A stretch of DNA of 57,224 bases from Quadrisphaera sp. RL12-1S. GTDB lineage: Bacteria > Actinomycetota > Actinomycetes > Actinomycetales > Quadrisphaeraceae. A program made the translations under genes and the position numbers. This document shows, piece after piece, positions 65 to 49,343 of the stretch (its first letter is position 1; the number at the start of each line of letters is the position of its first letter). The notes beneath the pieces are model-generated. The model did not search any database and was not told the DNA's origin. It saw only the letters and a list, made by a program, of their open reading frames with translations. The DNA is taken from contig NZ_JACNME010000020.1 in NCBI RefSeq assembly GCF_014270065.1, positions 1 to 57,224 on the forward strand. The letters run 5' to 3'.

Positions 65-125
65 GCCTCAGCAGGTTGCTCCGAGCCCCACAAGATCGCT
101 ACCGGACATCTGCAACGTCTTCTAA

Positions 126-1580: not shown

Positions 1581-1598
1581 CACGGAACCGGGCTGTAC

Positions 1599-2105
1599 TC
1601 ATGGCTGTCGCGCCTCCGTCGTGTCGCTGCCGCCCGCGGTGCTGCGGGGTTCGCTGGTCAGGTCCGCCGAGGCCACAACGCGGCGCAGCCCGTCAACGAC
1701 ATCGGCGGGGGCTCCCCCACCGACGGTGCCGACGCAAGTGAGGGTGGTCCCGCCATCTCGGGGCACCAGCAGCCGGTAGACGGTGACCTGCGCGCCGCCC
1801 TCAGCACCTCGATGGGCCACCTCGAGCACCTGCTCCTCGCGACCGTCTGCGGTGTCCCGACGCCCCTCGAACGCCGTGGTCGCCTCCAGCAGGCCCGCAG
1901 CCCCCAGGCGCAGCGCGTCCCAGGCGGCATCTGCCGAGTCGGCGGTGTCGAGCGCCACCTGCACGCTCGGGGCCATGACGCCGTCTGCCGGCTCCGGGCC
2001 GACCACGAGGAGCACGAAGCCGGAGGCCTGCAGCTCCCCCCACGTCGGCGGGACGTCGGCGGTGACCACCAGCGGCGTCCCCGTGATCATGCGGGTGAGT
2101 CTCAT
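1599..2105 (-). CDS. LpqN/Mog1-like protein, possible type VII secretion accessory factor
   Basis: The 168-residue product is soluble, with an alpha/beta pattern: a strand-rich first half (GFVLLVVGPEPADGVMAPSV), a central helix (DAAWDALRLGAAGLL) and a strand pair ending in a helical DVVDGLRRVVASADL segment. This layout resembles the Mog1p/PsbP-like fold of LpqN-type proteins, which in mycobacteria are linked to ESX loci. The match is by pattern and context, not by a diagnostic motif. ATG 2105 overlaps the stop of the WXG100-like gene upstream by four bases (ATGA), so the two are translationally coupled. A role as chaperone or immunity partner of that protein is an inference. It is the last gene of the long minus-strand locus. 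Confidence 0.45.
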   Translation of the reverse strand: MRLTRMITGTPLVVTADVPPTWGELQASGFVLLVVGPEPADGVMAPSVQVALDTADSADAAWDALRLGAAGLLEATTAFEGRRDTADGREEQVLEVAHRGAEGGAQVTVYRLLVPRDGGTTLTCVGTVGGGAPADVVDGLRRVVASADLTSEPRSTAGGSDTTEARQP

Positions 2106-3265
2106 CGGATCCCCTTCCAGAAACGTGCTGCGCCCTCGGCGACGTCGTCGGCGAGCTCGGTCGGATCCACGCTGACGTCGACAGCGCCACCAGCGCCCAG
2201 CCCGATCGCCGCTCCCACGTTGGCCCTGAACCCGACCTTGTGCGCCGTGAGCGACAGGCCCGCGTCGGCCTGGGCCCCGGCACCAGCGTGCCCCTGCACC
2301 TGGGCGTCCACCGTCAGGGGGCCGAACTTGGTGCCCAGCCCGGCGGTGACCGTGGCCATGACGCCGGCCTCGGCCTTGGCGTTGAGGTCGGCCCCCTTCG
2401 GTCCCACCTGCACCTTCCCGCCGGCGTCGGCGTAGGCCTTGAGCTCACCGGCCACCCGGGCGTGGGCGTTGACCGCGTCGGTGCCGACACGACCGGCGGC
2501 GGACGCGCTCACGGCCGCTACCACCCCGACGCCTGCGGCGGCCGCGAGACCGTCTGAGGAGAGCTTCGCTGAGGCGTCAGCGGTGACCGAGGCCTCTGCT
2601 AGGGCCGCGGCGTCGTACTGGAACAGGCCGTCGGCCGTGGCTCCGTGGTGAGAGGCCTCGACGTGCCCCTCCACGCCGGTGTGCGCCTCGCCCAGCCCGA
2701 GCTGCGGGCTGAGGTGCACGGCCTCCACCAGGGTGTCGACGTCTCCCTGCCAGTGCAGGAACTCCGACAGCAGGTGCGGATCACGTGCCAGCTCGGTCAG
2801 CAGCGCGCGGGTGGTGTTCGAGGCGCCGTCCAGGCGCTCCAGCACGGTGAAGAGACCCGGGGGGAAGAACCGGTCGGAGTAGGCGAGGTCTGGTCGCTCG
2901 ACAACGCCGCGCAGCAGAGGACCGAGGACCGAACGGCCAGCTGCGCCCAGGAGGAGGCCGTCTCCAAAACCCCCTCCTGCGCCCGTGCTGCCGCCGGAGG
3001 AGCTGGCGCGCTCCTGCTCGTCGGCGTTGCGCCGCAGCGTGCGGGCCGCCTCCTCCAGCAGGCCGACGGCGGATCGGAGCGCCACGAGGTCCGTGCCGTT
3101 GAAGCGGCGCCGGTAGTCGTCGGCGCGCTGCCCGGTCCACGGGGCCGCCGCCAGCGACGCCCGGACCCCCTCCCCCAGGGTCCGGACGCGCTGGGCGCCC
3201 AGGTCCAGCTGGCGGGCGAGGTCGCGCAGCTGCGCGACATCAGCTCCGGTCAGGTTCCCTGCCAC
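2102..3265 (-). CDS. Large WXG100-like protein, candidate type VII secretion substrate or effector
   Basis: The 387-residue product starts with a helical hairpin of WXG100/LXG type. Helix 1 is around residues 5-35, the turn motif is WTGQRADDYRRRF near residues 43-55, and a second helix contains LLEEAARTLRRNADEQ. A flexible Ser/Gly linker near residues 90-105 leads to a helical middle part and then a long Ala/Gly-rich C-terminal half (about residues 215-370) of alternating short segments, as in the pre-toxin regions of polymorphic toxins. No known toxin motif is visible at the C-terminus. GTG 3265 follows a good GGGAGGGG site. The gene lies 58 bases behind the small WXG100 gene and overlaps the LpqN-like gene by four bases, as expected for a secreted protein with a partner and a chaperone. 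Confidence 0.6.
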   Translation of the reverse strand: MAGNLTGADVAQLRDLARQLDLGAQRVRTLGEGVRASLAAAPWTGQRADDYRRRFNGTDLVALRSAVGLLEEAARTLRRNADEQERASSSGGSTGAGGGFGDGLLLGAAGRSVLGPLLRGVVERPDLAYSDRFFPPGLFTVLERLDGASNTTRALLTELARDPHLLSEFLHWQGDVDTLVEAVHLSPQLGLGEAHTGVEGHVEASHHGATADGLFQYDAAALAEASVTADASAKLSSDGLAAAAGVGVVAAVSASAAGRVGTDAVNAHARVAGELKAYADAGGKVQVGPKGADLNAKAEAGVMATVTAGLGTKFGPLTVDAQVQGHAGAGAQADAGLSLTAHKVGFRANVGAAIGLGAGGAVDVSVDPTELADDVAEGAARFWKGIR

Positions 3266-3323
3266 GCCCCGCCCCTCCCCTCGTCACGCTGCGCGGTGTT
3301 CTGCGGTGTGCTGGCCGGCCGCC

Positions 3324-3590
3324 TCAGCGGCCCGAGACGTCGCGCTGCTCGCGGGCGTTGCGGGAGGCGGCCTGGCTGGCCTGGTTCAGGCCGTCGACCA
3401 CGCGCTGCAGCGCGGTGCGGTGGGTGCCGTTCCACTCGTTGAGGAACTGCTGCTGGTCGTTGCCGACCCACTCGGCGCTCTGCAGCAGGCTGGAGAGCTT
3501 GGCGGACAGCTGCTGGATCTGCTGACCGGCGTCGCTCAGCTGACGCGCGACACCCTCGACCTGCTCCACGTTCATGCCGACCATCGCCAT
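3324..3590 (-). CDS. WXG100 (EsxA/CFP-10-like) protein
   Basis: An 88-residue all-helical protein with the signature turn EWVGND at about residues 46-51 between two amphipathic helices. This is the size and layout of secreted WXG100 proteins, which form helical-hairpin dimers and leave the cell through the EccC/EssC ATPase. ATG 3590 is preceded by AAGGAGG at ideal spacing; a Met at residue 3 or 6 is less likely. Its position between the EccC/RDD-FHA genes and the larger WXG100-like gene marks this stretch as a type VII secretion module. The C-terminal tail (ASRNAREQRDVSGR) has no obvious YxxxD/E export signal, so export may depend on the larger partner. Confidence 0.85.
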   Translation of the reverse strand: MAMVGMNVEQVEGVARQLSDAGQQIQQLSAKLSSLLQSAEWVGNDQQQFLNEWNGTHRTALQRVVDGLNQASQAASRNAREQRDVSGR

Positions 3591-3738
3591 GGCTGCCTCC
3601 TTCATCAGGCCCCGAGCGCTGTGCCCGGGGGCTCCTCCCCGGCTGTTCCGGGGTGGTGGGTGAACTCCACCGCAGCGGCGCTGCGGCGTCGATGGGGACA
3701 ACTCCCCGCCGTCGAGAAGAGCCCTGCGAGCAGCAGTT

Positions 3739-25330: not shown

Positions 25331-25510
25331 GGTGCTCCTCTCGCGGCGCCCTGCCCGGGCTGGACTGCGGTGATGGCCAGGCAGCGGACGGACACTAGGC
25401 GGGGTTCGGTCTGCCCGACCAGGGGGTGTTTGTCCCTTCTAGGAGGACTGGCAAAGCCGTCCACCCTGGGGATCATGAGAACGCTAGACAGGGCTCCCCA
25501 CCTGCGTCGA

Positions 25511-25627
25511 TGGGGAGAACACCCCATGGCGGACCTCGCCGCGCCCCCGGCCGATGGCGTCAGGTGGGAGGGCGGTGGCCGGAGGCGACCCACAGCACCG
25601 AGGCCAGAACCCGCCTGTCCGGCTGGC
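25511..25627. repeat. Long direct repeat, copy A
   Basis: Aligning by eye, 25511-25627 matches 33008-33124 without gaps and with about eight differences in ~117 bases. The shared segment covers the 3' end of a LuxR-type regulator gene plus about 45 bases downstream. Both copies have the same internal join CCGGACAGGCGGGTTCTGG, so they descend from one already-deleted ancestor. Confidence 0.8.
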
Positions 25628-25630: not shown

Positions 25631-25985
25631 CACAGGCCGTACGCCAGCAGGTCGGTGAGGTAGTCGGCCTGCAGGGGCCAGCGGTCTCGCAGGTGCCCCT
25701 CCGTCGCGCGGAGCGGACCGAGGCGGGTGGCCGCGGCGCACACACGCGCCACGGTCACCCCGGCGAACAGGCGGGCCGGGACGTCGGGGGCGCCGGTGGC
25801 CGAGGTCTCGCGGCTGGCAGCCGCAGTCTCGGGGCGGGCCGCCGGGGCGGCGGCGCGAACTCGGCGAGGAGCAGACGGACGCCGGCGTCGAGCAGGGCCG
25901 TGGTCATCGGGTGCTCGGCCAGCCGCTGGCGGGCGGCCTCGGTGCGCCGGGTGGAGGTCGTCGGGTCCAAGATCCGGCGCAGCAC
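25628..25985 (-). pseudogene. Decayed paralogue of the N-terminal lobe of the 51007-52587 gene
   Basis: From GTG 25985 the minus strand reads LRRILDPTTSTRRTEAARQR and HPMTTALLDAGVRLLLAE, which matches the start of the 526-residue protein at 51007-52587 nearly residue for residue. It then runs out of frame and stops at 25755. In another frame (about 25800-25630) the homology resumes with VARVCAAATRLGPLRATEGH and RDRWPLQADYLTDLLAYGLW. One frameshift therefore separates the halves, and the homology ends abruptly at the LuxR remnant. The rest of the lobe and the whole second lobe are missing. Confidence 0.8.
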
Positions 25986-26091
25986 CCGATCATGGTGCGG
26001 GCCGGTCCTCCACGGCGGCGCGCCGAGACACGGCGGTGTTCCCGGAGAGGGGACGCCGACGCGGCCAGGGCAGCGGCAGGCCCCCGGGCGC

Positions 26092-27470
26092 TCAGTCGGT
26101 CAGCGCGGGCTCCGTCAGAGGCGGCGGGGGCACGCGGAACAGGCGCGTCCGCCACAGCAGCAGCACCAGACCGAGCACCATCCAGGCAGCGCCCAGCGTC
26201 AGCGCCGTCGCGTCCAGGCTGATGAACAGCAGCACGTTGACCGCCACCCCCAGCACCGGCAGCACGTAGCAGCCCACCACGTGGCCCGGCTCCGCTGCCG
26301 CGCACGAACCGCACCGCCACCAGCACCACCGAGGCGTTCACCGCCACGAACGCGACGAACGCGCCGAAGTTGATGACCGAGGCCGCCTGCGCCAGGTCGA
26401 TGAAGACCGCCGTGCACGCCAGCAGCGCCACGAGCAGCGTGTTCGCCACCGGCACCCCGGTCCGCACCGAGACCCGCCCGAAGAAGCCGCGCGGCAGCAC
26501 GCCGTCCCGGCCCATCGCGTACAGCAGCCGAGCGGCGCTCATCTGTTGCGTCACCCCGCACCCGAGCACGGCCACCAGGTACCCGGCCAGGAAGAACGCC
26601 TGGAAGGCCGGGCCACCGATGTACAGGGCGATCTCCGGGGAGGCCCCCACCACGTCCGCCAGCTGGGAGACGTCGGGGAAGAGCGACTGCATCGTGTACG
26701 TCACGCCTACGAAGAAGACGCTGGCCACCGCCACGATGATGAAGATGGCCCGCGGCAGGTCCCGGCGCGGCCGCTCGGCCTCCTCCGCGAGGGTGCTCAC
26801 GGCGTCGAAGCCCAGGAACGACAGCGCCAGGATCGCCGCGCCCGCCGCCAGGCCGCCGACCCCGACGTCCTGCCCGGCGCCGAAGGGCGCCAGCGTGAAC
26901 GCCTGCGCGCCCGGGCCGTCGAGCACGGCCTTCACGACCAGCACCACGAACGCCCCGGCCACCACCACCTGCACCGCCACGAGCAGCACGTTCACGCGCG
27001 CCGCCAGCTGCACCCCGGCGAGGTTCAGCGCCGTGCAGATGACGATCGTCGCGCCGATCCACACCCACGACGGCACGTCCGGGAACGCCGCGCCCATGTA
27101 CCGCCGACAGCAGCGCGTTGAGCATCGGCAGGAACAGGTACGCCAGCGTGGTCGCCCACCCGACCATGAAGCCCACGTGCGGGTGGATGGCCTCCTTGGC
27201 GTACGTGTACGCCGACCCCGCCGACGGGTAGTGCCGCACCATCCGCGCGTAGCTCAGCGCGGTGATGACAACGGCGACGACGACGAGCAGGTACGACGCC
27301 GGCACCCGGTTGCCCGAGGCGTCAGCGGCGATGCCGAAGGTGTCGAAGACGGCCAGCGGCGCCATGTAGGCCAGGCCGATGAACACGATGTGCCGCAGCG
27401 TCAGCCTGCGCCGCAGGCCGGAGCCGGTGACCGCGGCGTCGTCGTCGCGGGTCCTCGTGGTGGCGCTCAT
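26092..27470 (-). pseudogene. APC-family amino acid/polyamine permease with two frameshifts
   Basis: Three pieces in different frames make up one ~460-residue permease. Piece 1 (27470 to about 27102) has the N-terminus TLRHIVFIGLAYMAPLAVFD, SYARMVRHYPSAGSAYTYAK and GFMVGWATTLAYLFLP. Piece 2 (about 27101 to 26290) holds the middle helices, including SFLGFDAVSTLAEEAERPRR, typical of the APC superfamily. Piece 3 (about 26285 to 26092) holds the last two helices. The first shift looks like a single lost base after SAV (about 27101). ATG 27470 overlaps the amidohydrolase stop by four bases, suggesting a former catabolic operon. Sequencing error cannot be excluded, but two independent shifts beside other broken genes favour decay. 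Confidence 0.8.
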
Positions 27471-28290
27471 GCCGGCACCCCGTGCGTCTGATGCGCCGAG
27501 CAGTGCGAGACCGCGCCGTAGTGGCCGACACCCGGCTCCGCTCCCCCGCCCCCCGGGCCGCTGCTGCCGACGTCGTGGACGACCTCACCGCCGACCACCG
27601 TCAGCGCCGCCTGCTGCTCCAGCAGCGCCGCAGAGTCTTCGGCGTGGGCGTACAGGTCGTCGGACCAGACCACCAGGTCGGCCTTGGCGCCGACGCGCAG
27701 CACCCCGAGGTCGCCCTCGGCGTGCCAGGCCCACGCGCCCTCGGCGGTGTAGCCGCGCAGCGCCTGCTCCAGGGTGAGCCGCTCGTCGGGGGTCCAGGCG
27801 GCACTGCCGTCCAGGCCCGCCCGCGTCATGGCGGAGTACACGCCCACCAGCGGGTCCATCTCGCCCACCTGCCAGTCGCTCGACAGCGCCACGTGCGCCC
27901 CGGACGCTGCCAGGGAGCGCAGGCGCCAGGCGCGGTCCCAGCGGGCCTGGCCCACGTTCTCCATCCACGTGCCGGCCACCAGGTCCGGCGAGCAGTGCCG
28001 CGGCTGCATGGCGGCGACGACGCCGAGCGCGGCGAAGCGCGGCAGGTCGGCCGGACTGAGGCACTCCACGTGCACGATGCCGTGGCGCCGGTCGCGGGTG
28101 CCGTTGGTGCGCGCGGCCGCCTCGATGGCGTCCAGGGCCAGGCGCACCCCGCCGTCGCCGGTGGCGTGGGTGTGCGTCTGCAGGCCGAGGGCGTCCAGCG
28201 CAGTGACCGCCTCCTGCAGCACGCCGGGCGGGGCGGGCGGGGCGCCGCGGTGGCCGGGGCGGTCGGCGCACTCGAGGAGCCACCCCGGTA
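27467..28290 (-). pseudogene. YtcJ-like amidohydrolase, 5' half missing
   Basis: The minus strand from about 28290 to 27467 encodes the C-terminal ~270 residues of a metal-dependent amidohydrolase of the YtcJ/Amidohydro_3 type. It contains THTHATGDGGVRLALDAIEA, HGIVHVECLSPADLPRF, SSDWQVGEMDPLVGVYSAMT, the family-typical ALRGYTAEGAWA and GVLRVGAKADLVVWSDDL. The N-terminal half, with the first HxH metal site, is absent. Above about 28290 the frame stays open but no longer resembles the family, and only 145 bases separate it from the STAND gene on the other strand. Full-length members are about 530-560 residues. It was probably coupled to the permease gene downstream. Confidence 0.8.
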
Positions 28291-28435
28291 GGTGCCTGGC
28301 ATGGGCGCAGAAGGCGCACACGACACACGCGCCCACGGGCGTTGGCCGCGCAGCCCTCCGCCAAGGACGGCCCAGACCTGGGCCGCTGCACCCTGCTTTC
28401 TCCCCGGAGTCGCACACGCCTGGTAGAGAGGCGGC
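28291..28435. promoter_or_regulatory. Junction region and probable promoter of the STAND gene
   Basis: These 145 bases join the broken amidohydrolase to the STAND gene. No gene or long inverted repeat is visible. A GAGAGG ribosome-binding site (about 28426-28431) precedes GTG 28436. The promoter must lie here, but I see no convincing -10/-35 pair. Confidence 0.35.
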
Positions 28436-31400
28436 GTGCCCGCAGCCCTCCTGACACCCACGGAGAGGTACTGGCTCCCTCTCGATGCCACCCCGTCGAT
28501 GGACGAGAGGGGATGGCTGGCGCAGCCATCGCAAGCCCTGCCGTCCGCTGAGCCTTGGGCAGTTGTGCCCGCCCTTGCACCAGTGGCGGCTCCCTCGAGA
28601 TCAGCGCCCTTCACCCAGAGGTGCTCCGTGCTGCTCGGTCCCGCCGGCATGGGCAAGACGACGGCGATCCGCGATCGCTTGGTGCTCGCTCCTCATGGGG
28701 TGCCTTTAGCGCGCGTCGACCTCGAGCGACTGGGCCGAGAAGACCTCGAAGATCTCCTCCGCGAGGAACCCGAGGTGCGAACGTGGGAAGCCGGTGGCGG
28801 AGAGCTGTGCCTGGTCCTGGACTCCTTCGACGAGCCCCAGCACCGCCGCGAGGACTTCACGCAGGAGTTCGAGCGGCTGCTTCATCGGTGGCCCGTGGAC
28901 CGGTTGTGGCTCCGCGTGGCGTGCCGCAGCGCAGACTGGCCGACCTTCCTCACCGACTCGCTGGCGAGGGCATTTCCTCGGGGTGTCAGCACCTGGCAGT
29001 TGCTCCCGCTCACCCTCGACGCGATCCGCCAGGTCGCCGCGCGAGCGGGTGTGGACGACGGCGCCTTCATCACGGCGGTCGCGCAGCGCCGCGTGGGGGC
29101 GCTCGCAGCAGCACCGATGACGCTCAACCTGCTGCTGGCGGCCTTCAAGTCCTCCGGCGAGCTCCCTGGATCGACGTGGGACCTCTACCAGCAGGGGCTG
29201 CTCTCCTTCGCCGAGGAACGCTCGCCCCGTCGGCAGTACGCAGCGTCCAGAGACGACAGCCGCCCTACCGCCCGTAGATCCCTGGACATCGCGAGCCAGG
29301 TGGCGGCCGTCAACACCTTCGCGGGACTCCCGCGGCTGTGGACGTCCACGGAGTCGACGGCTCCGCACGGCACGCTCACGTCAGAACGGTTCCTCGACGG
29401 TGTGCACGGCTTGCCCGGTATCTCGGCGGTGAGCAGGAGTGAGCTGAGGCACGTCCTGCGGTCAGGGCTGTTCCACTCGCACGGCGACATCACCGGATGG
29501 ACCCACGCCACCGTGGGCGAGCACCTCGCGGCCGCTTGGGTCCGCGCGCTCGATGACGAGAGTGTCGCCGAGCTGCTGCTGGCCGGCGACGGCCGTCTGG
29601 CTCCCCAGACCTCTCGGATAGCAGCCTGGCTGGTGCTCGCCGACGCCCGTCGCTTCTCGTGGCTCGCAACGGCCGATCCGGCGGCGTTCGTCGGGCAGCT
29701 CGACATCCCGGACGCCGACGTGCGAGCAGCGGTCGCGGACGCCCTCTTCCAGCAGGTGGTCGCAGGCGATGCGCTACGACCGTGGTCCGCGGACTACCGC
29801 AACCTCGACCACCCGGGACTCAGCGCTCAGCTGGCTGGGTTCCTCGAGCACCCAGCCGTCGAGGCCCGGGTGCTCGCCGTCGACGTCGCACGGCAACTCC
29901 AGCCGCCGGGTCTCGGCGACCAGCTCGTGAAGATCGCTTTCGACCCAACAGAGCCGGTCCACCTGCGCGCCCGCGCCACACTTGCAGCCGGTGAGCGCAA
30001 CGATGCTGATGGTCTGGTCGAGGTGCTGGTCCGACCGCCTGACGAGGACGACTTCGGAGAGCTCGTCGGAGCGGGCATCCTCGCTTGCTGGCCCCGTCGG
30101 ATCTCTACACGTCAAGCCCTGCAGCACCTCAGTACGACACACCCCCGAGTCCACATCGGGGGGAACCTCGACACGGCCGCTCGTCACATCGCCGGCGGGC
30201 TGACCCAAGACGACATCGAGGCCTCGGCCGAGTTCCTCCTCGAGGCAGACCCCGGGCCGCAGGACGGGCACCTCGACGTCGTCGTCCCCGCAGCGTTCGT
30301 GCTGTGCGCCAACCACCTCGACGTCGGCCGCGCCGCCGTGGCATGCACGACCCTGCTGCTGAAGCGCCTCCGGGCGGGTCTGCCCGCCGTTCCAGCCGAA
30401 CCCGACGGCACCTTCCCCGCTCTCGCCGACCCTCGCAGGCTCGCGCTGTTCACCATCTGCGCCGCCGGGCCGAACGACCCGGTGCACATGCTCATGGTCC
30501 CTCCCTCGTTCGGAGGTCTGCTGGGACCAGAGGACCGCGCCTGGTTGCTTGACCAGGAGCACCAGGTACCGGTGAATGACCCTCGGGTGTTCGCCCGGTT
30601 CCACGTCCCAGACGACGCGGGCTCGCCTCGCCCTCCCGCGCTGACCCCACCCTCTGCGCCCCGCAGGACCGGGCTCACCGCGGAGAACCGCGCACTCCTC
30701 GAGGCAGCTCTTGACCAGTGCGAGGGAGGCCTGGTCGATGTTTTCCTCGACGTGTCCTGGCTCGTGTCGGGGCGAGACGTCGACCCGACCTCCCTGGGCT
30801 CGCATGCAGCCGACCTCTCCCAGCGCCCCCGCTGGCGCCTCCTCCCGAAAGTCCACCGCGAGCGCGTGCTTGACGCGGCCGAGCAGTACGTAGGGCTCGG
30901 CTCGTGTTCAGCGTCACCGCAGGACAGCACGGCCGAGCGTCGACACGGCGAGGAAGGAGTCCGAGCGCTCGTCACCCTGACCGCCCAACGACCCGACGCC
31001 CTCAACAGGGTGACCCCCGAGGCGTGGCGGCGGTGGGGAGAGCCGATCGTGCGCTGGTCGTGGGGTCCGTTCGGCATGAACCGCATCGAGAAGACTTCTC
31101 TGATCGAGCGAGCGATGCCTCATGCCCGGGACGTCATGGAGGACGCGCTGCTCGCGGCCGTGGCGGCGGCGTCAGTCATCGGCGAACAATCGTTCATCGA
31201 TGTCGAGGCCCGCTTGCTGTGGTCTGACGGGCTCGCGGACCGGCTCCTCGAGCGGCTGGCCCTCGGCCTCCCGCGCGTGACGCACATCGATGTCGCTCGC
31301 GTGCTGCTGACGCACGTGCCGCTCCTGGTGCGCCCAGTGCTCGCCACTCAGTGCGCCGAGGGGTCGCCTGACACGGCCGTGAGCTCCGCCATCGTCCTGC

Positions 31401-32488
31401 TGCGGTTCGACAGCCTCGCGTCCGATGAAACCATCAACTCGCTCATCACCGACCGACCTGATGTCCTCCGGCAGGCGGTGATCAGCATCGGTTCGCTCGG
31501 TCCCGACACAGCTCCCGAAGTGGAGCCCACCGTGGCCGCCAACCTCATCGTGTGGCTGATGGCCCAATCCGGTGCCACGAACGCCGGTCAACTGCCGCGG
31601 GCCTGGCGGCAGGACGACGTATTCAGCGAGTGGGCGGCTGCCCTCGCTGCAGCACTGCGTGCCGACGCGTCCGCTGACGCGGTCGCGGCCCTCGAACGCG
31701 TCGTGGTGACACTGCCAGACAGCGAGTACATGCGACACGAGCTCCTCTTGGCCAGGTCGGCGCACCGGACACGCACGTGGGTTCCGGTCGAGCCGAGAAC
31801 GCTGATGTCTCTGCCGCACACCCACTCGCTCCCCCTGCGGAGTGCCGCAGACCTGCGGAAGGCCACCGTCATGGCCCTTCGAGAGGTGCAGCAGCGACTC
31901 TCCGCTGGCGGGGCCCGCCTTCTGTGGGACACCTATGCAGGTCGCCCGAAGGAGGAGGAGCAGATCAGCGAGTACCTCGCCGACCGTCTCGAAGATCTGC
32001 TCAGCGCCAGGGGCGTCATCGTTCAGCCGGAGGCCCACCTGTTCCGAACTCGGGCAACCGGGATCGGGGACCGAGCTGACATCCGCCTCGACGCGACCGT
32101 CCAGGCAGGTGCCGACCAGCGCGAGACCGTGAGCGTGCTGGTCGAGGTCAAGGGCGCCTGGAACAGGGACCTGCTCAACGGCCTCCAGGATCAGCTTGCT
32201 GAGCGGTACCTCGGTCTTGTCCCGGGTGCGCACGGGGTCTACGTCGTGGTCTGGCCTGACCCCGACGACCCCATGTGGAAGCAGACGCCCAAGGAGGATC
32301 CGCGCAAGCGCACCGTGGCGCAGCAGGAGCGACTCGGCCTCGTCGATGAGCTTGCTCGCAAGGCCCAGGAGCTGTCTGACGCCGTACGCACCATCGAGGT
32401 GGTCACCCTCGACCTGTCGACGAGGCGGCCAGGTCGGCTGCTGCCACGATCAGCCAACGCCGCTGGGTCGAACCCTATGGCGACGTGA
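28436..32488 (+). CDS. STAND/NACHT-like NTPase with C-terminal PD-(D/E)XK-like nuclease; candidate defence protein
   Basis: A 1350-residue single-gene protein. Residues 60-170 form a P-loop NTPase: Walker A GPAGMGKT (68-75), Walker B LCLVLDSFDE (about 124-133) and sensor LRVACRSADWP, as in STAND/NACHT proteins. A winged-helix-like part follows (about 190-420), then ~700 residues of alpha-solenoid, HEAT-like helices. The C-terminal ~180 residues contain EYLADRLEDLLSARGVIV, ADIRLD (D1215) and VLVEVKGAW (E1237, K1239), the layout of a PD-(D/E)XK nuclease. There are no membrane segments. A sensor-switch-effector design of this kind suggests abortive infection or DNA degradation on phage sensing; that is inferred. 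I do not recognise it as a named system. GTG 28436 has a GAGAGG site. It is flanked by gene remnants and converges with a lipoprotein gene (14-base overlap). Confidence 0.8.
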   Translation: MPAALLTPTERYWLPLDATPSMDERGWLAQPSQALPSAEPWAVVPALAPVAAPSRSAPFTQRCSVLLGPAGMGKTTAIRDRLVLAPHGVPLARVDLERLGREDLEDLLREEPEVRTWEAGGGELCLVLDSFDEPQHRREDFTQEFERLLHRWPVDRLWLRVACRSADWPTFLTDSLARAFPRGVSTWQLLPLTLDAIRQVAARAGVDDGAFITAVAQRRVGALAAAPMTLNLLLAAFKSSGELPGSTWDLYQQGLLSFAEERSPRRQYAASRDDSRPTARRSLDIASQVAAVNTFAGLPRLWTSTESTAPHGTLTSERFLDGVHGLPGISAVSRSELRHVLRSGLFHSHGDITGWTHATVGEHLAAAWVRALDDESVAELLLAGDGRLAPQTSRIAAWLVLADARRFSWLATADPAAFVGQLDIPDADVRAAVADALFQQVVAGDALRPWSADYRNLDHPGLSAQLAGFLEHPAVEARVLAVDVARQLQPPGLGDQLVKIAFDPTEPVHLRARATLAAGERNDADGLVEVLVRPPDEDDFGELVGAGILACWPRRISTRQALQHLSTTHPRVHIGGNLDTAARHIAGGLTQDDIEASAEFLLEADPGPQDGHLDVVVPAAFVLCANHLDVGRAAVACTTLLLKRLRAGLPAVPAEPDGTFPALADPRRLALFTICAAGPNDPVHMLMVPPSFGGLLGPEDRAWLLDQEHQVPVNDPRVFARFHVPDDAGSPRPPALTPPSAPRRTGLTAENRALLEAALDQCEGGLVDVFLDVSWLVSGRDVDPTSLGSHAADLSQRPRWRLLPKVHRERVLDAAEQYVGLGSCSASPQDSTAERRHGEEGVRALVTLTAQRPDALNRVTPEAWRRWGEPIVRWSWGPFGMNRIEKTSLIERAMPHARDVMEDALLAAVAAASVIGEQSFIDVEARLLWSDGLADRLLERLALGLPRVTHIDVARVLLTHVPLLVRPVLATQCAEGSPDTAVSSAIVLLRFDSLASDETINSLITDRPDVLRQAVISIGSLGPDTAPEVEPTVAANLIVWLMAQSGATNAGQLPRAWRQDDVFSEWAAALAAALRADASADAVAALERVVVTLPDSEYMRHELLLARSAHRTRTWVPVEPRTLMSLPHTHSLPLRSAADLRKATVMALREVQQRLSAGGARLLWDTYAGRPKEEEQISEYLADRLEDLLSARGVIVQPEAHLFRTRATGIGDRADIRLDATVQAGADQRETVSVLVEVKGAWNRDLLNGLQDQLAERYLGLVPGAHGVYVVVWPDPDDPMWKQTPKEDPRKRTVAQQERLGLVDELARKAQELSDAVRTIEVVTLDLSTRRPGRLLPRSANAAGSNPMAT

Positions 32489-32867
32489 TGACGATGAACA
32501 GCGATGCCGGTGTTCCACCCGCGTCAAGTGCAAGCCGCTCATCGCCCTTTGTCCCGACCGCGCTGGCCGCCGACCGTGCCTCCACCTGCCACCCGTTGCT
32601 CGCGGCCAGGCCGACCGCCGTCACCAGCATGGCGTCCGGCGAGGCCCCCTCCCCAGTGGGAGGGTCCACGTGACCTTCGGCTGCGACCTGGAGAACAGCG
32701 TCGTGCCCTTCTGGCGGGGTCACCGCCCCCGGTCCCGTTGTGCCAGCGTTGGAGGGGGACACCATCGGGTCCTCGAAGATCGTCGGGGCACGGCCGGAGC
32801 AAGCCGTCGCTGCGGTGGTGATGAGCACGAGCGATGCGAGGACCGCACCTGCCATTCGACGCGTCAC
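32475..32867 (-). CDS. Small putative lipoprotein, function unknown
   Basis: The 130-residue product starts at GTG 32867 (or ATG 32855) with a short basic N-terminus and a hydrophobic stretch MAGAVLASLVLITTAATAC. The Cys at about residue 23 could be a lipobox (ATAC is a weak match). The rest is a small domain rich in Thr, Pro and Ala without a known motif; it ends in SLFIVITSP, which looks like a terminal beta strand. Its last 14 bases overlap the end of the STAND gene on the opposite strand. Whether it belongs functionally to that gene is unknown. Confidence 0.55.
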   Translation of the reverse strand: MTRRMAGAVLASLVLITTAATACSGRAPTIFEDPMVSPSNAGTTGPGAVTPPEGHDAVLQVAAEGHVDPPTGEGASPDAMLVTAVGLAASNGWQVEARSAASAVGTKGDERLALDAGGTPASLFIVITSP

Positions 32868-33007
32868 CGGTGCCTCGACGGCCTGTCCTAGGGGACGACG
32901 ACGTCGTACCCGGACGCCTTGGCCCTGATCCCGGCGAGTCCGATGCCCGTGACCGCGCCGCCGCTAGCGATGCCGTTGGCCGTGGCGGGGTACCGAGGGC
33001 TCACCGC

Positions 33008-33124
33008 TGGGGAGAACACACCATGGCGGATCTCGCCGCGCCCTCGGCCGATGGCGTCATAGGGGAGGGCGGCGGCCGGAGGCGACCCACAGCACCGAGG
33101 CCAGAACCCGCCTGTCCGGCCGGC
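33008..33124. repeat. Long direct repeat, copy B
   Basis: This is the second copy of the ~117-bp segment at 25511-25627, in the same orientation and 7.5 kb away. Here it is continuous with a longer LuxR-type remnant, so copy B looks closer to the ancestral arrangement and copy A derived. Confidence 0.8.
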
Positions 33125-35166: not shown

Positions 35167-37931
35167 CGGCTGAGCAGCGCGCCCGCCCTGCCGTAGGCCC
35201 CCTCGGTGACCGCTGACGCGCCCCCGAAGACCAGCACCCGCTCGGCCTGGAGACGGCCGAGGGCGGAGGCCGTGGAGGTCGGAACGGCGTCGACGCCCGT
35301 GGCGGTCAGCAGCAGCGGACCACCGAGGGCCGCCATGGCCGCCGAGCCCGACAGCGCGTCCGGCCACGAGGTCCCACCGGCCAGCCCCACCGTGGCCACC
35401 GTGCTGGTGGCCGTGCTGGTGGCCGTGCTGGGGATCCCGGGTGCGGCTGCCCGCATCGCCGCGCTGAGCTGGGCGGAGGTCTCGAAGCGGTCGGCCCCGA
35501 CGACGGCGCGCTCGACAGCGCCGACGAGCCCCGCGGAGGCGGCGGCAGCCCTGGCCGGGCCGCCGATGGCGATGGCGCGGGTGCCGGTGGGGTCGTGCGC
35601 CGCGAGGTAGGCGGCGGTCACCGCGGGCATCGTGCCCCCGTCGGTCAGCAGCACCACCCCGCCGGTGGACTGGGCGTAGGCGGCCACCGAGACGCCGTCG
35701 GCGAAGTCACGGCCGGTGACCAGGTAGATGGGGCCGACGTCGCCGGCACGCCGTGTGGTCGCGTCGGCGACGGCGACGGCGGTCTCGAAGCGGTCCCCGC
35801 CGCTGAGGCGGACCACGGAGTCCCCGGCGACGAGGCCGTCGGTGGCCTGCTGCACCGCCGCGGACAGGGCCCGGTCCCCACCGAGCACGTACACCGTGCC
35901 CCCGGCCGCGACGAGCCGCTCGACCTGGGCGGCGGCCTGCTCGCTGAGCCGTCCGGCGTCGGTGAGCAGCAGCGGTCCGCCGACCTGCCCGGCCAGGCGG
36001 GCGCCGGGCAGCGCGTCGGCGTAGGAGGCCGCGGTGGCGATCACCACGTCGCGGCTGGTGCCGGTGGAGGGGGTGGCGAAGACCTCGGAGGCGATGTCGG
36101 CCGACGTGGCCACCCGGTCGGCGCCGGCGAAGCGCTGCGGGCCGGCCGGGAGGGCCACCACGGACGTCCGGGCGTCGGTGATGGTGACGTCGAGGGTCTT
36201 CACCGCGGCGGAGTGGGTGGAGGTGGCGGCGGCGGTGATGCTGACCGAGCAGGTGCCCGCCTTCAGCGCGGTGACCACTCCGGACGCGTCGACCGAGCAC
36301 ACCGCCGGCGAGGCGCTGCTGTAGCTCAGCCTCCCGCCGGCCACTCCCTGCCCCGTCGTCGACCCCGCCCCCGTGGCGACGGCGTTCAGCGCGAACGTGC
36401 GCGCCCCCAGCCCCACGACCAGCGGTGAGCCGGTGGACAGCTGCTGCGGGGGCAGGCCAGGACGCGCACCGCTGCTGGGCGGCGCTGGGAGCACGATGAT
36501 CGCCGTCGACTCGGTGTCGCGGCCCGCGGCCGTCGTCGCCGTGATGTCGAACGTCGTCGTCCCCGCCGCCGTGGGGGTGCCGCGCACCGCACCCGTGGTG
36601 GTGTCCAGCGCCAGGCCGGGCGGCAGCGAGCCGGCGGTGATGCTCCAGGTGACCGCCGAAGAACCGGCGGAGACGCCGACGGGCAGCGTGTACGGAAAAC
36701 CCACCGTGCCGGCCCTCGACATGGCGGGGAGGACGATGGTCGGCACCGTCCCCGACGGGACGGTCGCCTTCTCGATGAGGTTGTTGTTGTGGTCGGCGAT
36801 GTAGACGTCGCCGGTGGCGCTCGCCGCCACGTCGGACGGCCGGTCCAGCTGGGCGCTGGTGGGGTTGGCCGTCGACGCGGGGTGCACGGCCCCTCCCCCA
36901 GCCACCACGCTGATCGCACCCGCTGACGTGACCCGCGCGATGCGGCTGGAGCCGGTGACGGCGATGTAGACGTCGCCGTCCGGGGTCACCGACACCCCTC
37001 CGGGAGAGACCAGCTGGGCGCTGGTGGCGGTGCTGGCCGAGGCCAGCGCCGTGGAACCACCACCCGCGATGACGCTGATCCCGCCCGACGGAGTGACCTT
37101 CGCGACCCGACCGTCACCGGTAGCGGCGACGAAGACGTTGCCGGAGGAGTCCACCGCCACCCCTCCCGGGGAGGAGAGCCGGGCGCTGGTGGCCGTGCTG
37201 GCCGAGGCGAGCGCCGTGGAACCGCCTCCAGCGACGACGCTGATCCCACCCGACGGGGTCACCTTGACGACGCGACCGTCACCGGCGGTGGCGATGAAGA
37301 CGTTGCCGGCGGGGTCCACCGCCAGCCCGCTGGGGTCGTCCAGCTGGGCGCTCGTGGCGGCGGTCGCCGAGCCCACGGCGGTGGCGCCACCTCCCGCGAC
37401 CACGCTGATCCTCCCCGACGGGGTGACCTTGGCGACGACGTCGGCGGACTGCTCGGCGAAGTAGACGTTGCCGACGGAGTCCGCTGCCACGGCGGAGAGG
37501 CGGAACAGCTGGGCGTCGGTGGCGGCCGTGGCCGAGACCAGGGCCGTGAGGCCCCCGCCTGCGACGACGCTGATCGCCCCGCTGGGGGTGAGCCGGGCCA
37601 CGAGCCCGTCGTTGGAGCTGCCGATGTAGAGGTCGCCCGAGGAGCGCTCCAGCGCCACCGACTCGGGGAAGATGACGTCGGCGCCGGTGCCGGTGGTGGC
37701 CGTCGCCAAGGTCGAGGGACCACCACCGGCGACCACGGTGAACGAGGGGGTGTGGGGCACCGGCGCTGCTGCGGCGGGCCCGACACCGAGGAGTGCGCTC
37801 GTGACGCAGCTCAGCGCGACGGCCCCCGTCGAGCAGGCGAGCCGCAGCCGGCGCAGCCGGTCCAGCCGGTCCGCCGGGCTGACGGGCCCCGCCGAGGACG
37901 CACCGGACGCAGCAGGCGGGAGATCACGCAC
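35163..37931 (-). CDS. Secreted NHL-repeat protein with three cell-wall-binding repeats (CWB2)
   Basis: A 922-residue product from GTG 37931; GTG 37994 is an alternative 21 codons upstream. A signal segment (ACSTGAVALSCVTSALLGVG) ends near an AAAAPVPHT cleavage site. About six NHL-type propeller repeats (about 65-380; PSGGISVVAGGGS, VAVDSSGNVFVA) are followed by a putative Ig (He_PIG) domain, a small Ig-like domain and three CWB2 repeats (about 595-920; RFAGADRVATSADIA, RLSGGDRFETAVAVAD, VVGADRFETSAQLS). CWB2 domains hold proteins on the cell wall by binding secondary polymers. The propeller may bind carbohydrate or protein ligands. It is the first gene of the operon with the two secreted proteins that follow. 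Confidence 0.85.
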   Translation of the reverse strand: MRDLPPAASGASSAGPVSPADRLDRLRRLRLACSTGAVALSCVTSALLGVGPAAAAPVPHTPSFTVVAGGGPSTLATATTGTGADVIFPESVALERSSGDLYIGSSNDGLVARLTPSGAISVVAGGGLTALVSATAATDAQLFRLSAVAADSVGNVYFAEQSADVVAKVTPSGRISVVAGGGATAVGSATAATSAQLDDPSGLAVDPAGNVFIATAGDGRVVKVTPSGGISVVAGGGSTALASASTATSARLSSPGGVAVDSSGNVFVAATGDGRVAKVTPSGGISVIAGGGSTALASASTATSAQLVSPGGVSVTPDGDVYIAVTGSSRIARVTSAGAISVVAGGGAVHPASTANPTSAQLDRPSDVAASATGDVYIADHNNNLIEKATVPSGTVPTIVLPAMSRAGTVGFPYTLPVGVSAGSSAVTWSITAGSLPPGLALDTTTGAVRGTPTAAGTTTFDITATTAAGRDTESTAIIVLPAPPSSGARPGLPPQQLSTGSPLVVGLGARTFALNAVATGAGSTTGQGVAGGRLSYSSASPAVCSVDASGVVTALKAGTCSVSITAAATSTHSAAVKTLDVTITDARTSVVALPAGPQRFAGADRVATSADIASEVFATPSTGTSRDVVIATAASYADALPGARLAGQVGGPLLLTDAGRLSEQAAAQVERLVAAGGTVYVLGGDRALSAAVQQATDGLVAGDSVVRLSGGDRFETAVAVADATTRRAGDVGPIYLVTGRDFADGVSVAAYAQSTGGVVLLTDGGTMPAVTAAYLAAHDPTGTRAIAIGGPARAAAASAGLVGAVERAVVGADRFETSAQLSAAMRAAAPGIPSTATSTATSTVATVGLAGGTSWPDALSGSAAMAALGGPLLLTATGVDAVPTSTASALGRLQAERVLVFGGASAVTEGAYGRAGALLSR
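36846..37570 (-). repeat. 165-bp tandem repeats encoding NHL propeller blades
   Basis: Within the CWB2 protein gene the segments at about 37024, 37189 and 37354 repeat with a period of 165 bases (55 codons) and strong identity even at third positions. More diverged units lie on both sides. This points to recent unit duplication in the propeller, and the copy number may vary between strains. Confidence 0.7.
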
Positions 37932-40803: not shown

Positions 40804-40851
40804 GGCGGCACCCCGGCACGCCCTCGCCGGACCTCCCCCCGGTGCGCGACG

Positions 40852-41523
40852 TCAGACGGGAGGGCGTCGCCCGGAGGTCGCCCACAGCACCGACGCCAGC
40901 ACCCGACCGTTGTGGATGTCCACCCCCAGCTTCTGGTAGGCGTTCTTCAGGTACCCCTCCACCGTCCGGTCCGACAGCGCTCCCCCGTCCGGGCGGCGCA
41001 GCCGGTCGGCGATCTGCTGGTTGGACAGCCCCTGCGCGGCCAGGTCCAGCACCTCCGCCTCCCGCGCGCTCAACGCGTCCAACGCCCCCTCGCGCTCGGC
41101 GCGCGCCGCCACCTGCCGGCGCAGGTCCGGGTCCACGTACGAACCCCCGTTGGCCACCCCGTCCAGCACCGCCGCGAACGCCGAGATCCGCGCGATCGAC
41201 TTCTTCTGCACCAGCCCCACACCGTCACCACCCAGCCGCTGCGCCCGCTGGACGTCCTCGACCTCCATCTCGAAGGAGATCAGCATGATCCCGATCCCGG
41301 GGAACCGGGCCCGCAGCGCCTGCGCGGTCTCGAACCCCTCCAGCCGGTTCGGGGGGATCGCCTTGTCCAGCACCACCAGGTCCGGCGGGTCGACCTCGTC
41401 GATCCGCGCCAGCAGCTCCGCACCACTGGTCACCGCCAGCACCAGCTGGTGCCCGTACCGCTCCAGCGGCCCGCGGAACGCGGCCAGCGTGAACTCCGAG
41501 TCATCCACCACCGCGTAGCGCAC
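40852..41523 (-). CDS. NarL/FixJ-type response regulator
   Basis: A 223-residue response regulator. The receiver domain (1-125) has the acidic pair D7-D8, phospho-acceptor D53 (VVLDKAIPP) and Lys near 107. The LuxR-type HTH (about 150-215) shows LSAREAEVLDLAAQGLSNQQ and SDRTVEGYLKNAYQKLGV. GTG 41523 lies inside the end of the histidine kinase gene (23-base overlap), so the two are translationally coupled. It is the intact relative of the two remnants at 25.6 and 33.1 kb; the C-terminal tail RVLASVLWATSGRRPPV is the shared signature. The LDKAIPP loop, in place of the more common DIRMP type, suggests a subfamily-specific partner. Confidence 0.92.
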   Translation of the reverse strand: MRYAVVDDSEFTLAAFRGPLERYGHQLVLAVTSGAELLARIDEVDPPDLVVLDKAIPPNRLEGFETAQALRARFPGIGIMLISFEMEVEDVQRAQRLGGDGVGLVQKKSIARISAFAAVLDGVANGGSYVDPDLRRQVAARAEREGALDALSAREAEVLDLAAQGLSNQQIADRLRRPDGGALSDRTVEGYLKNAYQKLGVDIHNGRVLASVLWATSGRRPPV

Positions 41524-43926: not shown

Positions 43927-43957
43927 GACGCGGGCGGCCGACCCGCCGACCCGCGTC
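43927..43957. terminator. Hairpin between convergent genes
   Basis: GACGCGGG (43927-43934) pairs with CCCGCGTC (43950-43957). The inner bases also pair partly. It starts 5 bases after the stop of the plus-strand membrane protein and includes the minus-strand regulator's stop, so it probably terminates both genes. Confidence 0.5.
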
Positions 43958-44570
43958 AGCGCAGGTCGAGGCGCCGGGCGAGGTCTGCCAGATCCATCCG
44001 GGTCTGCGTGGGCAGGCCCTCCCTGGTGGCCTTCTCCCGCAGGCGCTTGAGGTAGGTCTTCACCGTCTCGATGCGCACGCCCATCTCGCGTGCCACGAGC
44101 TTGGCCGGCAGCCCCGTGGCGTACCAGCGGAGCACGTCCAGCTCGCGCACTGAGAACAGGGTGCGCAACCGGCGGACCTCCGCCAGGCGGTCGGTCACCA
44201 CCTCCGCCACGGCCAGCTGGCCGTCCGCGGCGCGCCGCACCACGCGGACCAGCTCCTCCACGGTCCCTCCCGCGGACGCCGCGCCCCGCGCGCCGGCGTC
44301 GAGCGCGGCCAGGACGGCGCCGGGCGGGTCGTCGTCGTCGACCAGCACCACCACGGTGCGCCCGTCCGCCACGCCGGCGCGCACGTGGTGCGCGGCCCCG
44401 GGCGTGCGGCCCACCACCAGCACGTCGGCGGCCTCCGGCACCCGGGTCAGCACCGTGCGCAGGCCGAGGGCCAGCACGGGACGGGCGTCGAGCACCGTGA
44501 CCCGGGACGGGGGCGGCCCGCCGCCGTCCTCCGCGTCCCGCGGGGTCAGCTGCTGGTCGCAGCGCTGCAC
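43956..44570 (-). CDS. LuxR-type regulator with receiver-like domain (paralogue 1)
   Basis: The 204-residue product has an N-terminal receiver-like fold (VTVLDARPVLALGLRTVL, VVVLVDDDDPPGAVLAAL, DAGARGAASAGGTVEELVRV) whose first acidic pocket is reduced to one Asp. A C-terminal LuxR HTH follows (about 130-190: LFSVRELDVLRWYATGLPAK, MGVRIETVKTYLKRLREKA). The tail RLDLADLARRLDL type is shared with two other genes here (45747-46355 and 48753-49343). GTG 44570 follows GAGGAGG. It may act without phosphorylation. It lies back to back with the Uma2 gene. Confidence 0.8.
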   Translation of the reverse strand: MQRCDQQLTPRDAEDGGGPPPSRVTVLDARPVLALGLRTVLTRVPEAADVLVVGRTPGAAHHVRAGVADGRTVVVLVDDDDPPGAVLAALDAGARGAASAGGTVEELVRVVRRAADGQLAVAEVVTDRLAEVRRLRTLFSVRELDVLRWYATGLPAKLVAREMGVRIETVKTYLKRLREKATREGLPTQTRMDLADLARRLDLR

Positions 44571-45356: not shown

Positions 45357-45746
45357 GGGACTCGGGGCCCGCGGCTCCTGGCGAGGGCTGCCTGGAAGCC
45401 CGGGGCCGTGGCCGAGAAGTCGTCGGCGAACCACCAGCCCGACGTGGGCACCCGGCTGGGCGCCCGGAGCCTCGGTCGGCGCTCGCACCGCGGGTGCCGC
45501 CGCAGGTGGCTTCGGGGCCCCGGTCTGGCGGACCCGCACGACCCGGAGTGGACCGACGCCACCCTGGACGACGCCGCCACCGCGGCCTCCGAGACCGGAC
45601 GGGTCAGCGCCGCGGGGAGGCGTCGGCCAGGGTGCGCCCCTGCACCTGACCGCGGTCAGCTTCGGAGGCGACCGCGGTCAGGTACGGGGGCCGCTGCTGG
45701 GCCGTGACATCCGCAGGTGACCGCGGTCAGTTCCGCCCGGACGCCG
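45357..45746. repeat. Intergenic region with three TGACCGCGGTCA palindromes
   Basis: The 12-bp palindrome TGACCGCGGTCA occurs at 45647-45658 and 45718-45729, and with one change (CGACCGCGGTCA) at 45669-45680. The region lies between convergent stops (Uma2 and the next regulator). A plus-strand frame at 45408-45707 has poor composition and is not supported. The palindromes may be terminator hairpins, REP-like repeats or binding sites of a dimeric regulator. Confidence 0.65.
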
Positions 45747-46355
45747 TCACAGGAGGTCGAGCCGGCGGGCGAGGGCCGCCAGGTCCAGCCGGGACCCGGT
45801 GGGGAGGCCCTCCGGCTCGGCCTTCTCGCGCAGGCGCTTGATGTACGTCTTCACGGTCTCCAGCCCGACCTTCATCCGCCGCGCCACCGACTTCGCCGGC
45901 AGGCCCGTCGAGTACAGCCGCAGCACCTGCAGCTCCCGCGGGGTGAACAGCGCCCGCAGCCGCCGCACCTCCGCCAGGCGCTCGGCCACCGCGGCGGCCA
46001 CCCGCACCTGCCCGCCGCACGCCCCGGCCACCACGTGCAGCAGCTCGGCCACCGACCCGCCCGACAGCGCCACGCCCCGGGCTCCGGCCTCCAGGGCGGC
46101 GGTCACCTCGCCGGGGCGCTCGACGTCGTCGACCAGCACCACCACGGCGCGGCCGCGCTCGGCGCCAGCCCGCACCGACTCCAGCGCGTGGGGCGTGCGG
46201 CCCACCACCAGCAGCCCCTCGGCGGTGGACGGGGCCGCAGCGAGGGCGGCGCGCAGGCCGAGCACCACCAGTGGGCGCTCGTCCAGCACCGCCAGCACCG
46301 CCGGTACTGGCGTCTCGCGCGGTCGGGGCCACGCACCGTCGTCCTCGAGCATCAC
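45747..46355 (-). CDS. LuxR-type regulator with receiver-like domain (paralogue 2)
   Basis: The 202-residue product, paralogous to the genes at 43956-44570 and 48753-49343, has a receiver-like N-terminus (VLAVLDERPLVVLGLRAALA, VVVLVDDVERPGEVTAALEA) and the LuxR HTH LFTPRELQVLRLYSTGLPAK, MKVGLETVKTYIKRLREKA. It starts at GTG 46355 or ATG 46352, both within reach of GGGGAGG. The regulator is divergent from the HTH-DUF2690 gene, 216 bases away, which is its most likely target besides itself. Confidence 0.8.
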   Translation of the reverse strand: MMLEDDGAWPRPRETPVPAVLAVLDERPLVVLGLRAALAAAPSTAEGLLVVGRTPHALESVRAGAERGRAVVVLVDDVERPGEVTAALEAGARGVALSGGSVAELLHVVAGACGGQVRVAAAVAERLAEVRRLRALFTPRELQVLRLYSTGLPAKSVARRMKVGLETVKTYIKRLREKAEPEGLPTGSRLDLAALARRLDLL

Positions 46356-48744: not shown

Positions 48745-48752
48745 TGGGGTGG

Positions 48753-49343
48753 TCAGAGGAGGTCGAGGCGGCGGGCGAGGTCCACGAGCTCCAGGCGGGT
48801 GGTGGTGGCGATGCTCAGCGGCTCGGCCTTGGCGCGCAGCCGCTTCACGTACGTCTTCACCGTCTCCAGGCCCACGCCCATCCGCCGCGCCACCGACTTC
48901 GCCGGGATCCCCGTGGCGTACAGGGCCAGCACCTCCAGCTCGCGCGCGGTGAACACCGACCGCAGCTGCCGCAGCTGCTCGAGCCGCTCGGCCACCGACG
49001 CCGCCACGGCCACCCGGCCGCGGACGGCGCACCGCACCACGTGCGTCAGCTCGGCCACCGTCCCGCTGCCCACCGCCACGCCGCGGGCGCCAGCGTCCAG
49101 CGCGGCGGCGGCCAGGCCCGGGCTGTCGGCGTCGTCCAGCACGACCACCACGTGCTGGCCGCGGGCCACGGCGGCGACCACGGCGTCCAGCGCGCCGGGC
49201 ACCTGGCCGACCACCACCACACCGGCGGAGTCGGGCACGTCGGCCAGCGCGGTCTCGAGGCCCAGCGCCACGAGCGGGCGGTCGTCCAGCACCGTGGCGG
49301 TGCTGCGCCGCAGCAGCACCACCGCCTCGTTCGCGCGGTCCAC
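48753..49343 (-). CDS. LuxR-type regulator with receiver-like domain (paralogue 3)
   Basis: The 196-residue product is the third member of the trio. It has a receiver-like N-terminus (STATVLDDRPLVALGLETAL, VVVVLDDADSPGLAAAALDA) and the HTH VFTARELEVLALYATGIPAK, MGVGLETVKTYVKRLRAKA. The start VLDDRP keeps one more acidic residue than paralogue 1. GTG 49343 follows GGGGGGAG. It lies in the same direction as, and 129 bases after, the HTH/P-loop protein gene, so the two might be co-transcribed. Confidence 0.8.
   Translation of the reverse strand: MDRANEAVVLLRRSTATVLDDRPLVALGLETALADVPDSAGVVVVGQVPGALDAVVAAVARGQHVVVVLDDADSPGLAAAALDAGARGVAVGSGTVAELTHVVRCAVRGRVAVAASVAERLEQLRQLRSVFTARELEVLALYATGIPAKSVARRMGVGLETVKTYVKRLRAKAEPLSIATTTRLELVDLARRLDLL

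What the first reader, a model, noticed from the sequence alone, without database searches (positions are those of the whole stretch)
28436..32488. Candidate new defence system: STAND NTPase fused to solenoid and PD-(D/E)XK nuclease
One intact 1350-residue gene has a STAND-type NTPase at the N-terminus, a long HEAT-like middle and a nuclease-like C-terminus (D1215, E1237-x-K1239). In known Avs proteins the nuclease is N-terminal and the sensor C-terminal; here the order is reversed. It lies between broken genes in a region of rearrangement, a usual setting of defence genes.
Basis: partly seen in the sequence, partly recalled or inferred. Interest (0 to 1): 0.75.

Follow-up and report, generated by a model that had tools for sequence, protein, structure and literature searches.

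The report
NLR-like defence protein with tail nuclease
The window holds an intact gene for a bacterial immune-receptor-like protein that carries its DNA-cutting part at the tail end; it is a distant relative of two named anti-phage proteins, and its relatives show that the tail is exchanged as a unit, like a changeable weapon.

Summary

It is not a new kind. It is a deeply divergent relative of EruA and HyoA, named antiphage NACHT proteins by NCBIfam; the EruA model matches front and tail, and a true HyoA and an EruA-like protein share the layout. The 'reversed order' is a family property.

Closely related receptors carry unrelated tails, and in two pairs DNA identity resumes at or just behind the stop codon. 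This supports 'C-terminal module = exchangeable effector'. Defence by this very gene is inferred, not shown. Interest 0.5.

The parts
28436..32488 (+). whole gene, 1350 aa, GTG start; NACHT - solenoid - PD-(D/E)XK protein, EruA/HyoA-related
28436..28615 (+). residues 1-60: short N-terminal segment with conserved positions (R11, W13, G26, L28, P31), no effector domain recognised
28616..29551 (+). residues 61-372: NACHT-type STAND NTPase with winged-helix part (H357, E362); borders approximate
28637..28660 (+). Walker A, residues 68-75 (GPAGMGKT)
28805..28834 (+). Walker B, residues 124-133 (LCLVLDSFDE)
29603..31813 (+). residues 390-1126: HEAT-like all-helical solenoid, presumed sensor region (modelled to 1094)
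31814..32485 (+). residues 1127-1350: C-terminal module, PD-(D/E)XK nuclease; its start is where other relatives switch to another tail
32078..32080 (+). D1215, presumed catalytic acid
32144..32152 (+). E1237-x-K1239
32192..32209 (+). Q1253 ... Y1258, further invariant residues of the nuclease
27470..28291 (-). truncated amidohydrolase (C-terminal half only), left neighbour
25904..27470 (-). amino-acid permease with its matches in two frames
32475..32867 (-). small ORF (130 aa), no Pfam match, right neighbour overlapping the end of the gene
25508..25627 (+). left copy of a 120-bp direct repeat (93% identical)
33005..33124 (+). right copy of the 120-bp direct repeat

Best explanation
A single-gene, NLR-like anti-invader protein. 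Shown here (sequence and model): NACHT-type NTPase at the front, helical solenoid in the middle, PD-(D/E)XK nuclease with its catalytic residues at the tail, homology to EruA/HyoA. Inferred: the solenoid, with the NACHT winged-helix part, senses an invader component; ATP-dependent oligomerisation, as in NLRC4 or Avs, clusters the tails; the clustered nucleases become active and cut DNA (phage, host or both), stopping the infection. That the C-terminal position is the effector site is supported by relatives that exchange this module for a CHAT protease, a nucleosidase or a membrane-helix tail at the same boundary.
Against: No experiment on this gene or a near relative; the nearest relative found is 36% identical over residues 8-569, and the query sits on a long, unsure branch. 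I did not find the paper behind the names EruA/HyoA, so that they are antiphage rests on NCBIfam titles. The window is no obvious defence island: PADLOC hits nearby fall on an FtsK/SpoIIIE-FHA protein and a Ser/Thr kinase. Tail exchange was seen in 20 cyanobacterial rows and one Chloroflexi row, not in near kin of the query. Foldseek for the nuclease model is weak (best E 4e-3, none under 0.001). The control neighbours also hold some defence-type matches (Cas1, RT/DRT, a HEAT-PD-(D/E)XK model, caspase).
Confidence: 0.68

Rival explanations
1. The tail nuclease is itself the recognition part (it binds invading DNA) and the NACHT-solenoid part drives it, as in a restriction machine, rather than an NLR with an effector tail.
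For: McrC, MspJI and restriction enzymes are among the fold matches of the tail; restriction-type models are among the neighbours' matches.
Against: Other relatives carry CHAT, nucleosidase or membrane-helix tails in its place while the NACHT part stays up to 88% identical, which fits an effector better than a DNA-recognition part; the front resembles NLRC4/NLRP3.
Confidence: 0.12
2. It guards against plasmids or conjugation rather than phages, by the same switch.
For: Relatives are found on plasmids (9 records, 40); none in 50,697 phage records.
Against: EruA/HyoA are titled antiphage; plasmid carriage is also common for phage defence (own knowledge).
Confidence: 0.15
3. A STAND regulator or DNA-repair factor with a housekeeping role, not defence.
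For: STAND proteins such as the regulator MalT exist outside immunity (a MalT-related structure, 8bob, is in the fold list).
Against: Patchy distribution, no neighbour cluster with more than 7 members around the homologues, effector-type tails, neighbours with strong defence matches.
Confidence: 0.05

Closest known systems
EruA (NCBIfam NF058535, NACHT domain-containing antiphage protein)
   Same: homologous front (61-569) and tail (profile 1002-1318 of 1318), same order; an EruA-like Vibrio plasmid protein (777 bits, under the cut-off) has D..ExK..Q..Y at the tail
   Different: 186.9 bits against a cut-off of 1000
HyoA (NCBIfam NF058534)
   Same: same order; the K. pneumoniae plasmid protein in L161 scores 1422 bits (cut-off 1200) and has a C-terminal D..ExK..Q..Y; near-identical DNA in 3 of 5426 E. 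coli genomes
   Different: query scores 100.7 bits; 19% identity to the L161 protein
Avs (antiviral STAND) proteins
   Same: STAND switch; Avs4 is the best Foldseek hit of the front
   Different: characterised antiviral STAND proteins usually have N-terminal effectors and a C-terminal sensor (PMC10907252, passages); here the nuclease is C-terminal
bacterial NACHT (bNACHT) proteins and animal NLRs (NLRC4, NLRP3)
   Different: no N-terminal effector recognised; the effector-type module sits behind the solenoid; bNACHT sequences were not compared one by one

Membership tests
EruA (NF058535) | score over the curated equivalog cut-off of 1000 bits | tested here: not met
   186.9 bits
EruA (NF058535) | homology over front and tail in the same order | tested here: met
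   profile 24-303 and 1002-1318 in the six-frame search; 24-517 in hmmscan
HyoA (NF058534) | score over the curated cut-off of 1200 bits | tested here: not met
   100.7 bits
NACHT clade of STAND NTPases | Walker A, hhhhDxxDE Walker B, conserved winged-helix histidine, NLR-like fold | tested here: met
NACHT clade of STAND NTPases | Pfam NACHT (PF05729) over its gathering score | tested here: not met
   13.3 bits against 26.7
PD-(D/E)XK nuclease superfamily | alpha-beta-beta-beta-alpha-beta core with D...(D/E)xK | tested here: met
   model pLDDT 88.4, invariant residues, VIA-align matches; Foldseek alone weak
PD-(D/E)XK nuclease superfamily | metal-dependent DNA cleavage | not testable with these tools
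   needs protein
Avs (AVAST) | effector N-terminal to the STAND NTPase, repeat sensor C-terminal | tested here: not met
   about 60 residues before the NTPase, nuclease at the C-terminus
Avs (AVAST) | match to PADLOC Avs models | tested here: not met
   only PDC-S68 at E 0.037 was listed
antiphage system | protection against phage | not testable with these tools
   needs a phage challenge

The most novel reading that the evidence does not exclude
The gene belongs to a very widespread NLR-like family (several bacterial phyla, a tail-less copy in an ANME archaeon, one viral contig) whose C-terminal effector is a recombining cassette: the receptor part is kept and the weapon (nuclease, CHAT protease, nucleosidase, membrane-helix, helical domain, short tail) is exchanged at a fixed boundary, in one locus leaving the displaced old tail behind, much as toxin tips are exchanged in Rhs/CDI proteins (comparison recalled). 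That would be an inverted, modular counterpart of Avs and of animal NLRs.
Probability: 0.6. Interest if true: 0.65.

Novelty: new member of a known kind. Interest (0 to 1): 0.5.

Why it matters
As a gene it adds a divergent, nuclease-armed branch to EruA/HyoA. The wider point: one receptor scaffold whose effector is exchanged at a sharp C-terminal boundary makes it testable how an NLR-like switch passes its signal to an effector on the far side of the solenoid, and offers natural chimeras (NACHT parts up to 88% identical with different tails) to test it.

Tried and rejected
Tried: Pfam on the whole protein and on the tail alone: nothing over a cut-off. The weak GTP cyclohydrolase match of the tail is taken as chance, because the tail model has a PD-(D/E)XK fold and motif. 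PADLOC: nothing better than E 0.037. Solved structures by sequence: only that cyclohydrolase at E 0.2. Genome contigs and viral contigs with the single protein: none; an alignment was needed. Phage records: none. Papers: searches for EruA/HyoA found no antiphage paper (one search lists an unrelated E. coli regulator of the same name); searches for NACHT proteins with C-terminal effectors gave no account of this layout in what I saw (listings; passages of four papers). The library is open-licence only; two searches returned nothing, perhaps for the wording.

Considered and rejected: that the tail exchange is a misreading of frame errors. Three pairs with the same tail align throughout (tail scores 910, 532, 945), the six differing pairs score 22-36; in two pairs DNA identity resumes at or just behind the stop codon. 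But one short-tailed row is probably such an error: the tail of L048 resembles the start of CHAT tails (scores 75, 70, 59 against 41 and 36 for two helical tails). Counted as it stands, 11 of the 22 pairs with cores at least 70% identical (of 2701 pairs, query not included) differ in tail class; without L048 it is 7 of 18. The pairs share rows and are not independent. Considered: that loci keep silent tail cassettes in general. A copy of the core end beside an old tail was found in L042 only; L081 gave a second core-end match, in a broken gene; 66 loci had over 1 kb downstream or a hit. A conserved partner gene: no neighbour cluster holds more than 7 members. Defence island in the window: PADLOC matches to mad8/SspH and PD-T4-6/mad6 are put down to FtsK/SpoIIIE, FHA and kinase domains.

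Rows dropped: 7 homologues with a missing or cut tail (L047, L058, L068, L076, L080, L081, L109) were left out of the tree; L115 had no ORF of 600 aa or more. A2 holds all 53 nuclease-tailed homologues; for A3 I gave 53 of 75 to limit its size. Tree: quick method, 30 of 72 inner branches open, query on a long branch. Neighbour test: 115 genes of 20 loci against 126 genes of 21 of 22 control regions (L146 gave none); genes of 1500 aa or more left out; L092 gave 2 and L111 5 neighbours. PADLOC counts families (280 against 44), which overlap; how many proteins or loci they come from was not shown.

Full report
What is there. The ORF at 28436-32488 (+) is 1350 codons long and uninterrupted, coding by composition, with lower GC (0.69) than the window (0.755). 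The nearest relative begins at about the same place (MESVERYW in L028 against TPTERYW in the query), so the GTG start is plausible.

Family. Pfam gives nothing over a cut-off and PADLOC nothing better than E 0.037. NCBIfam gives EruA at E 6.4e-55 and HyoA at 4.7e-29, both far under their equivalog cut-offs. In a six-frame search the EruA model matches both the front (24-303) and the tail (1002-1318 of 1318) of this gene. A K. pneumoniae plasmid protein is a HyoA over the cut-off (1422 bits) and a Vibrio campbellii plasmid protein is EruA-like (777 bits, cut-off 1000), both matched nearly end to end. Both show D..ExK..Q..Y near the C-terminus (in HyoA the ExK is shifted by a gap, so I read it by eye). 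So HyoA, EruA-like proteins and this protein share one layout.

Relatives. Full-length homologues: 4 of the 395 other genomes drawn from the phylum, with a fifth that holds only a 62-residue nuclease piece; none among 98 other genomes from the genus, family and order apart from a 42-residue piece; 9 plasmid records, 40 with a homologue as query, most of them partial. With alignment A1, 159 of 195 candidate stretches in genome contigs encode a relative and the best 80 were kept; their titles name Bacillota, cyanobacteria, Acidobacteria, Planctomycetota, Bacteroidales, Proteobacteria, Chloroflexi, a Nomurabacteria bin and an ANME-2 archaeon. Viral contigs gave 2 loci, one with a full-length homologue; phage records none. 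Of these 82 loci, 81 gave an ORF of 600 aa or more that matches.

The exchange. 21 homologues leave the alignment at residues 1124-1136 and go on with another tail; one more ends at 1045 and 6 are shorter. By record title 20 of the 21 are cyanobacterial and one (L051) is Chloroflexi. Tails fall into classes: CHAT (L042, L073, L101) and PNP_UDP_1 (L051), both over the Pfam cut-off; a class with a hydrophobic stretch (L049, L079, L094, L106; top 19-residue hydropathy 1.88-2.45 against at most 1.31 in the other 18 tails listed; the membrane reading is mine); a ~140-aa class of 9 rows linked by phmmer ('helical' is my reading); L046; short tails (L062, L066, L048, the last probably a cut CHAT tail). 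On a tree of residues 60-600 (75 rows, quick method) tail class needs 13 changes, the least possible being 6; well-supported branches alone force at least 6 for nuclease versus the rest. L064 (nuclease) and L056 (helical) have 88% identical NACHT parts; their DNA is 87% identical over nt 1-3663 of the L064 gene, without a match over the tail, and 86-87% identical again from the stop codon on. L079 (membrane type) and L108 (helical) behave alike (82% to nt 3578, resuming 22 nt behind the stop). L042 (CHAT) and L090 (helical) are 84% identical in the NACHT part. Downstream of the CHAT-tailed gene in L042 lies a copy of the core end fused to the last 28 or so residues of a helical tail and a stop: the displaced old tail. 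So the C-terminal module is exchanged as a unit, as I would expect of an effector; this carries over to the window protein by homology only.

Context. Left neighbours are a truncated amidohydrolase and a permease whose matches lie in two frames. A 120-bp direct repeat brackets permease, amidohydrolase and the gene; in the own genome the search found besides these only a 56-bp partial copy at 40850-40905, and none in 5 genus mates (40 of 182 candidates scored in the own genome). Two genus mates match the window only to the right of about 38855 in the stretches compared. This fits an acquired segment; how it came in is open. Relatives: up to three genes each side of 20 homologues (115 genes) match 280 PADLOC families at E <= 1e-10, among them Gabija A and B, Hma A, B and C, DrmD, class I pAgo and BrxH at E < 1e-90; several of these models may hit the same protein. 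126 genes from 21 control regions in the same genomes match 44 families, best E 7e-51, including RT/DRT, Cas1, caspase and a HEAT-PD-(D/E)XK model. I rely on the strong matches (the components of two systems, Gabija and Hma) rather than on the counts. HyoA in one E. coli record lies by helicase, SIR2 and antirestriction genes.

Literature. PMC10907252 (passages) gives the usual order: N-terminal effector, STAND, C-terminal sensor. PMC8195603 and PMC7159879 (passages) describe effector-associated domains and STAND fusions, among them GT4 or lectin-type domains in C-terminal position. PMC13092281 (section 5 whole, further passages) reports validated systems with NACHT and PD-(D/E)XK domains in E. 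coli under DS numbers; what I saw does not let me map any to this family. I did not find the primary source of EruA/HyoA.

Verdict. A sound observation and a sound functional guess, on a family that already has two named antiphage members. The fresh part is the exchange of the C-terminal module across the family.

Noticed in passing
L042:14522-14690: Displaced old tail: copy of the core end fused to the end of a helical tail, downstream of the gene that now has a CHAT tail; a footprint of effector exchange.
   Followed up: yes
window 25508-25627 and 33005-33124; partial at 40850-40905: 120-bp direct repeat (93%) bracketing the gene and the two damaged left neighbours; a partial copy lies behind a DUF222 gene.
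   Followed up: partly
window 3739-25310 (-): Gene run with FtsK/SpoIIIE+FHA, TgpA-like transglutaminase, MoxR-type ATPase, a 2221-aa Big_9/cadherin/fn3 protein, Ser/Thr kinase, RDD and FHA proteins; it trips PADLOC models (mad8, SspH, PD-T4-6) without looking like a defence system.
   Followed up: partly
window 43954-44499, 45745-46291, 48752-49296: Three diverged copies (71-76% DNA identity) of one stretch within 6 kb.
   Followed up: no
window 36749-37744: Internal repeats in a protein with NHL and CWB2 domains.
   Followed up: no
L049, L056, L064, L079, L094, L099, L108, just downstream of the gene: A pair of small genes (80-85 and 121-138 aa) recurs behind both nuclease-tailed (L064, L099) and other-tailed homologues; not identified.
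   Followed up: no
L062 and L066, last ~40 residues of the protein: Very short tails ending in a Gln/Asn/Gly-containing motif that reminds me of amyloid signalling motifs (recalled, untested).
   Followed up: no
L032:8829-9569 (+): A 246-aa ORF that matches only the nuclease part of this family (phmmer E 3.6e-6); possible free-standing version of the tail.
   Followed up: no
L114: One full-length homologue on a 59-kb IMG/VR viral contig, grouping with a Nomurabacteria protein.
   Followed up: no
L071:18759-20465 (+): A 569-aa ORF similar to the CHAT tails lies about 5 kb behind a homologue with a helical tail.
   Followed up: no
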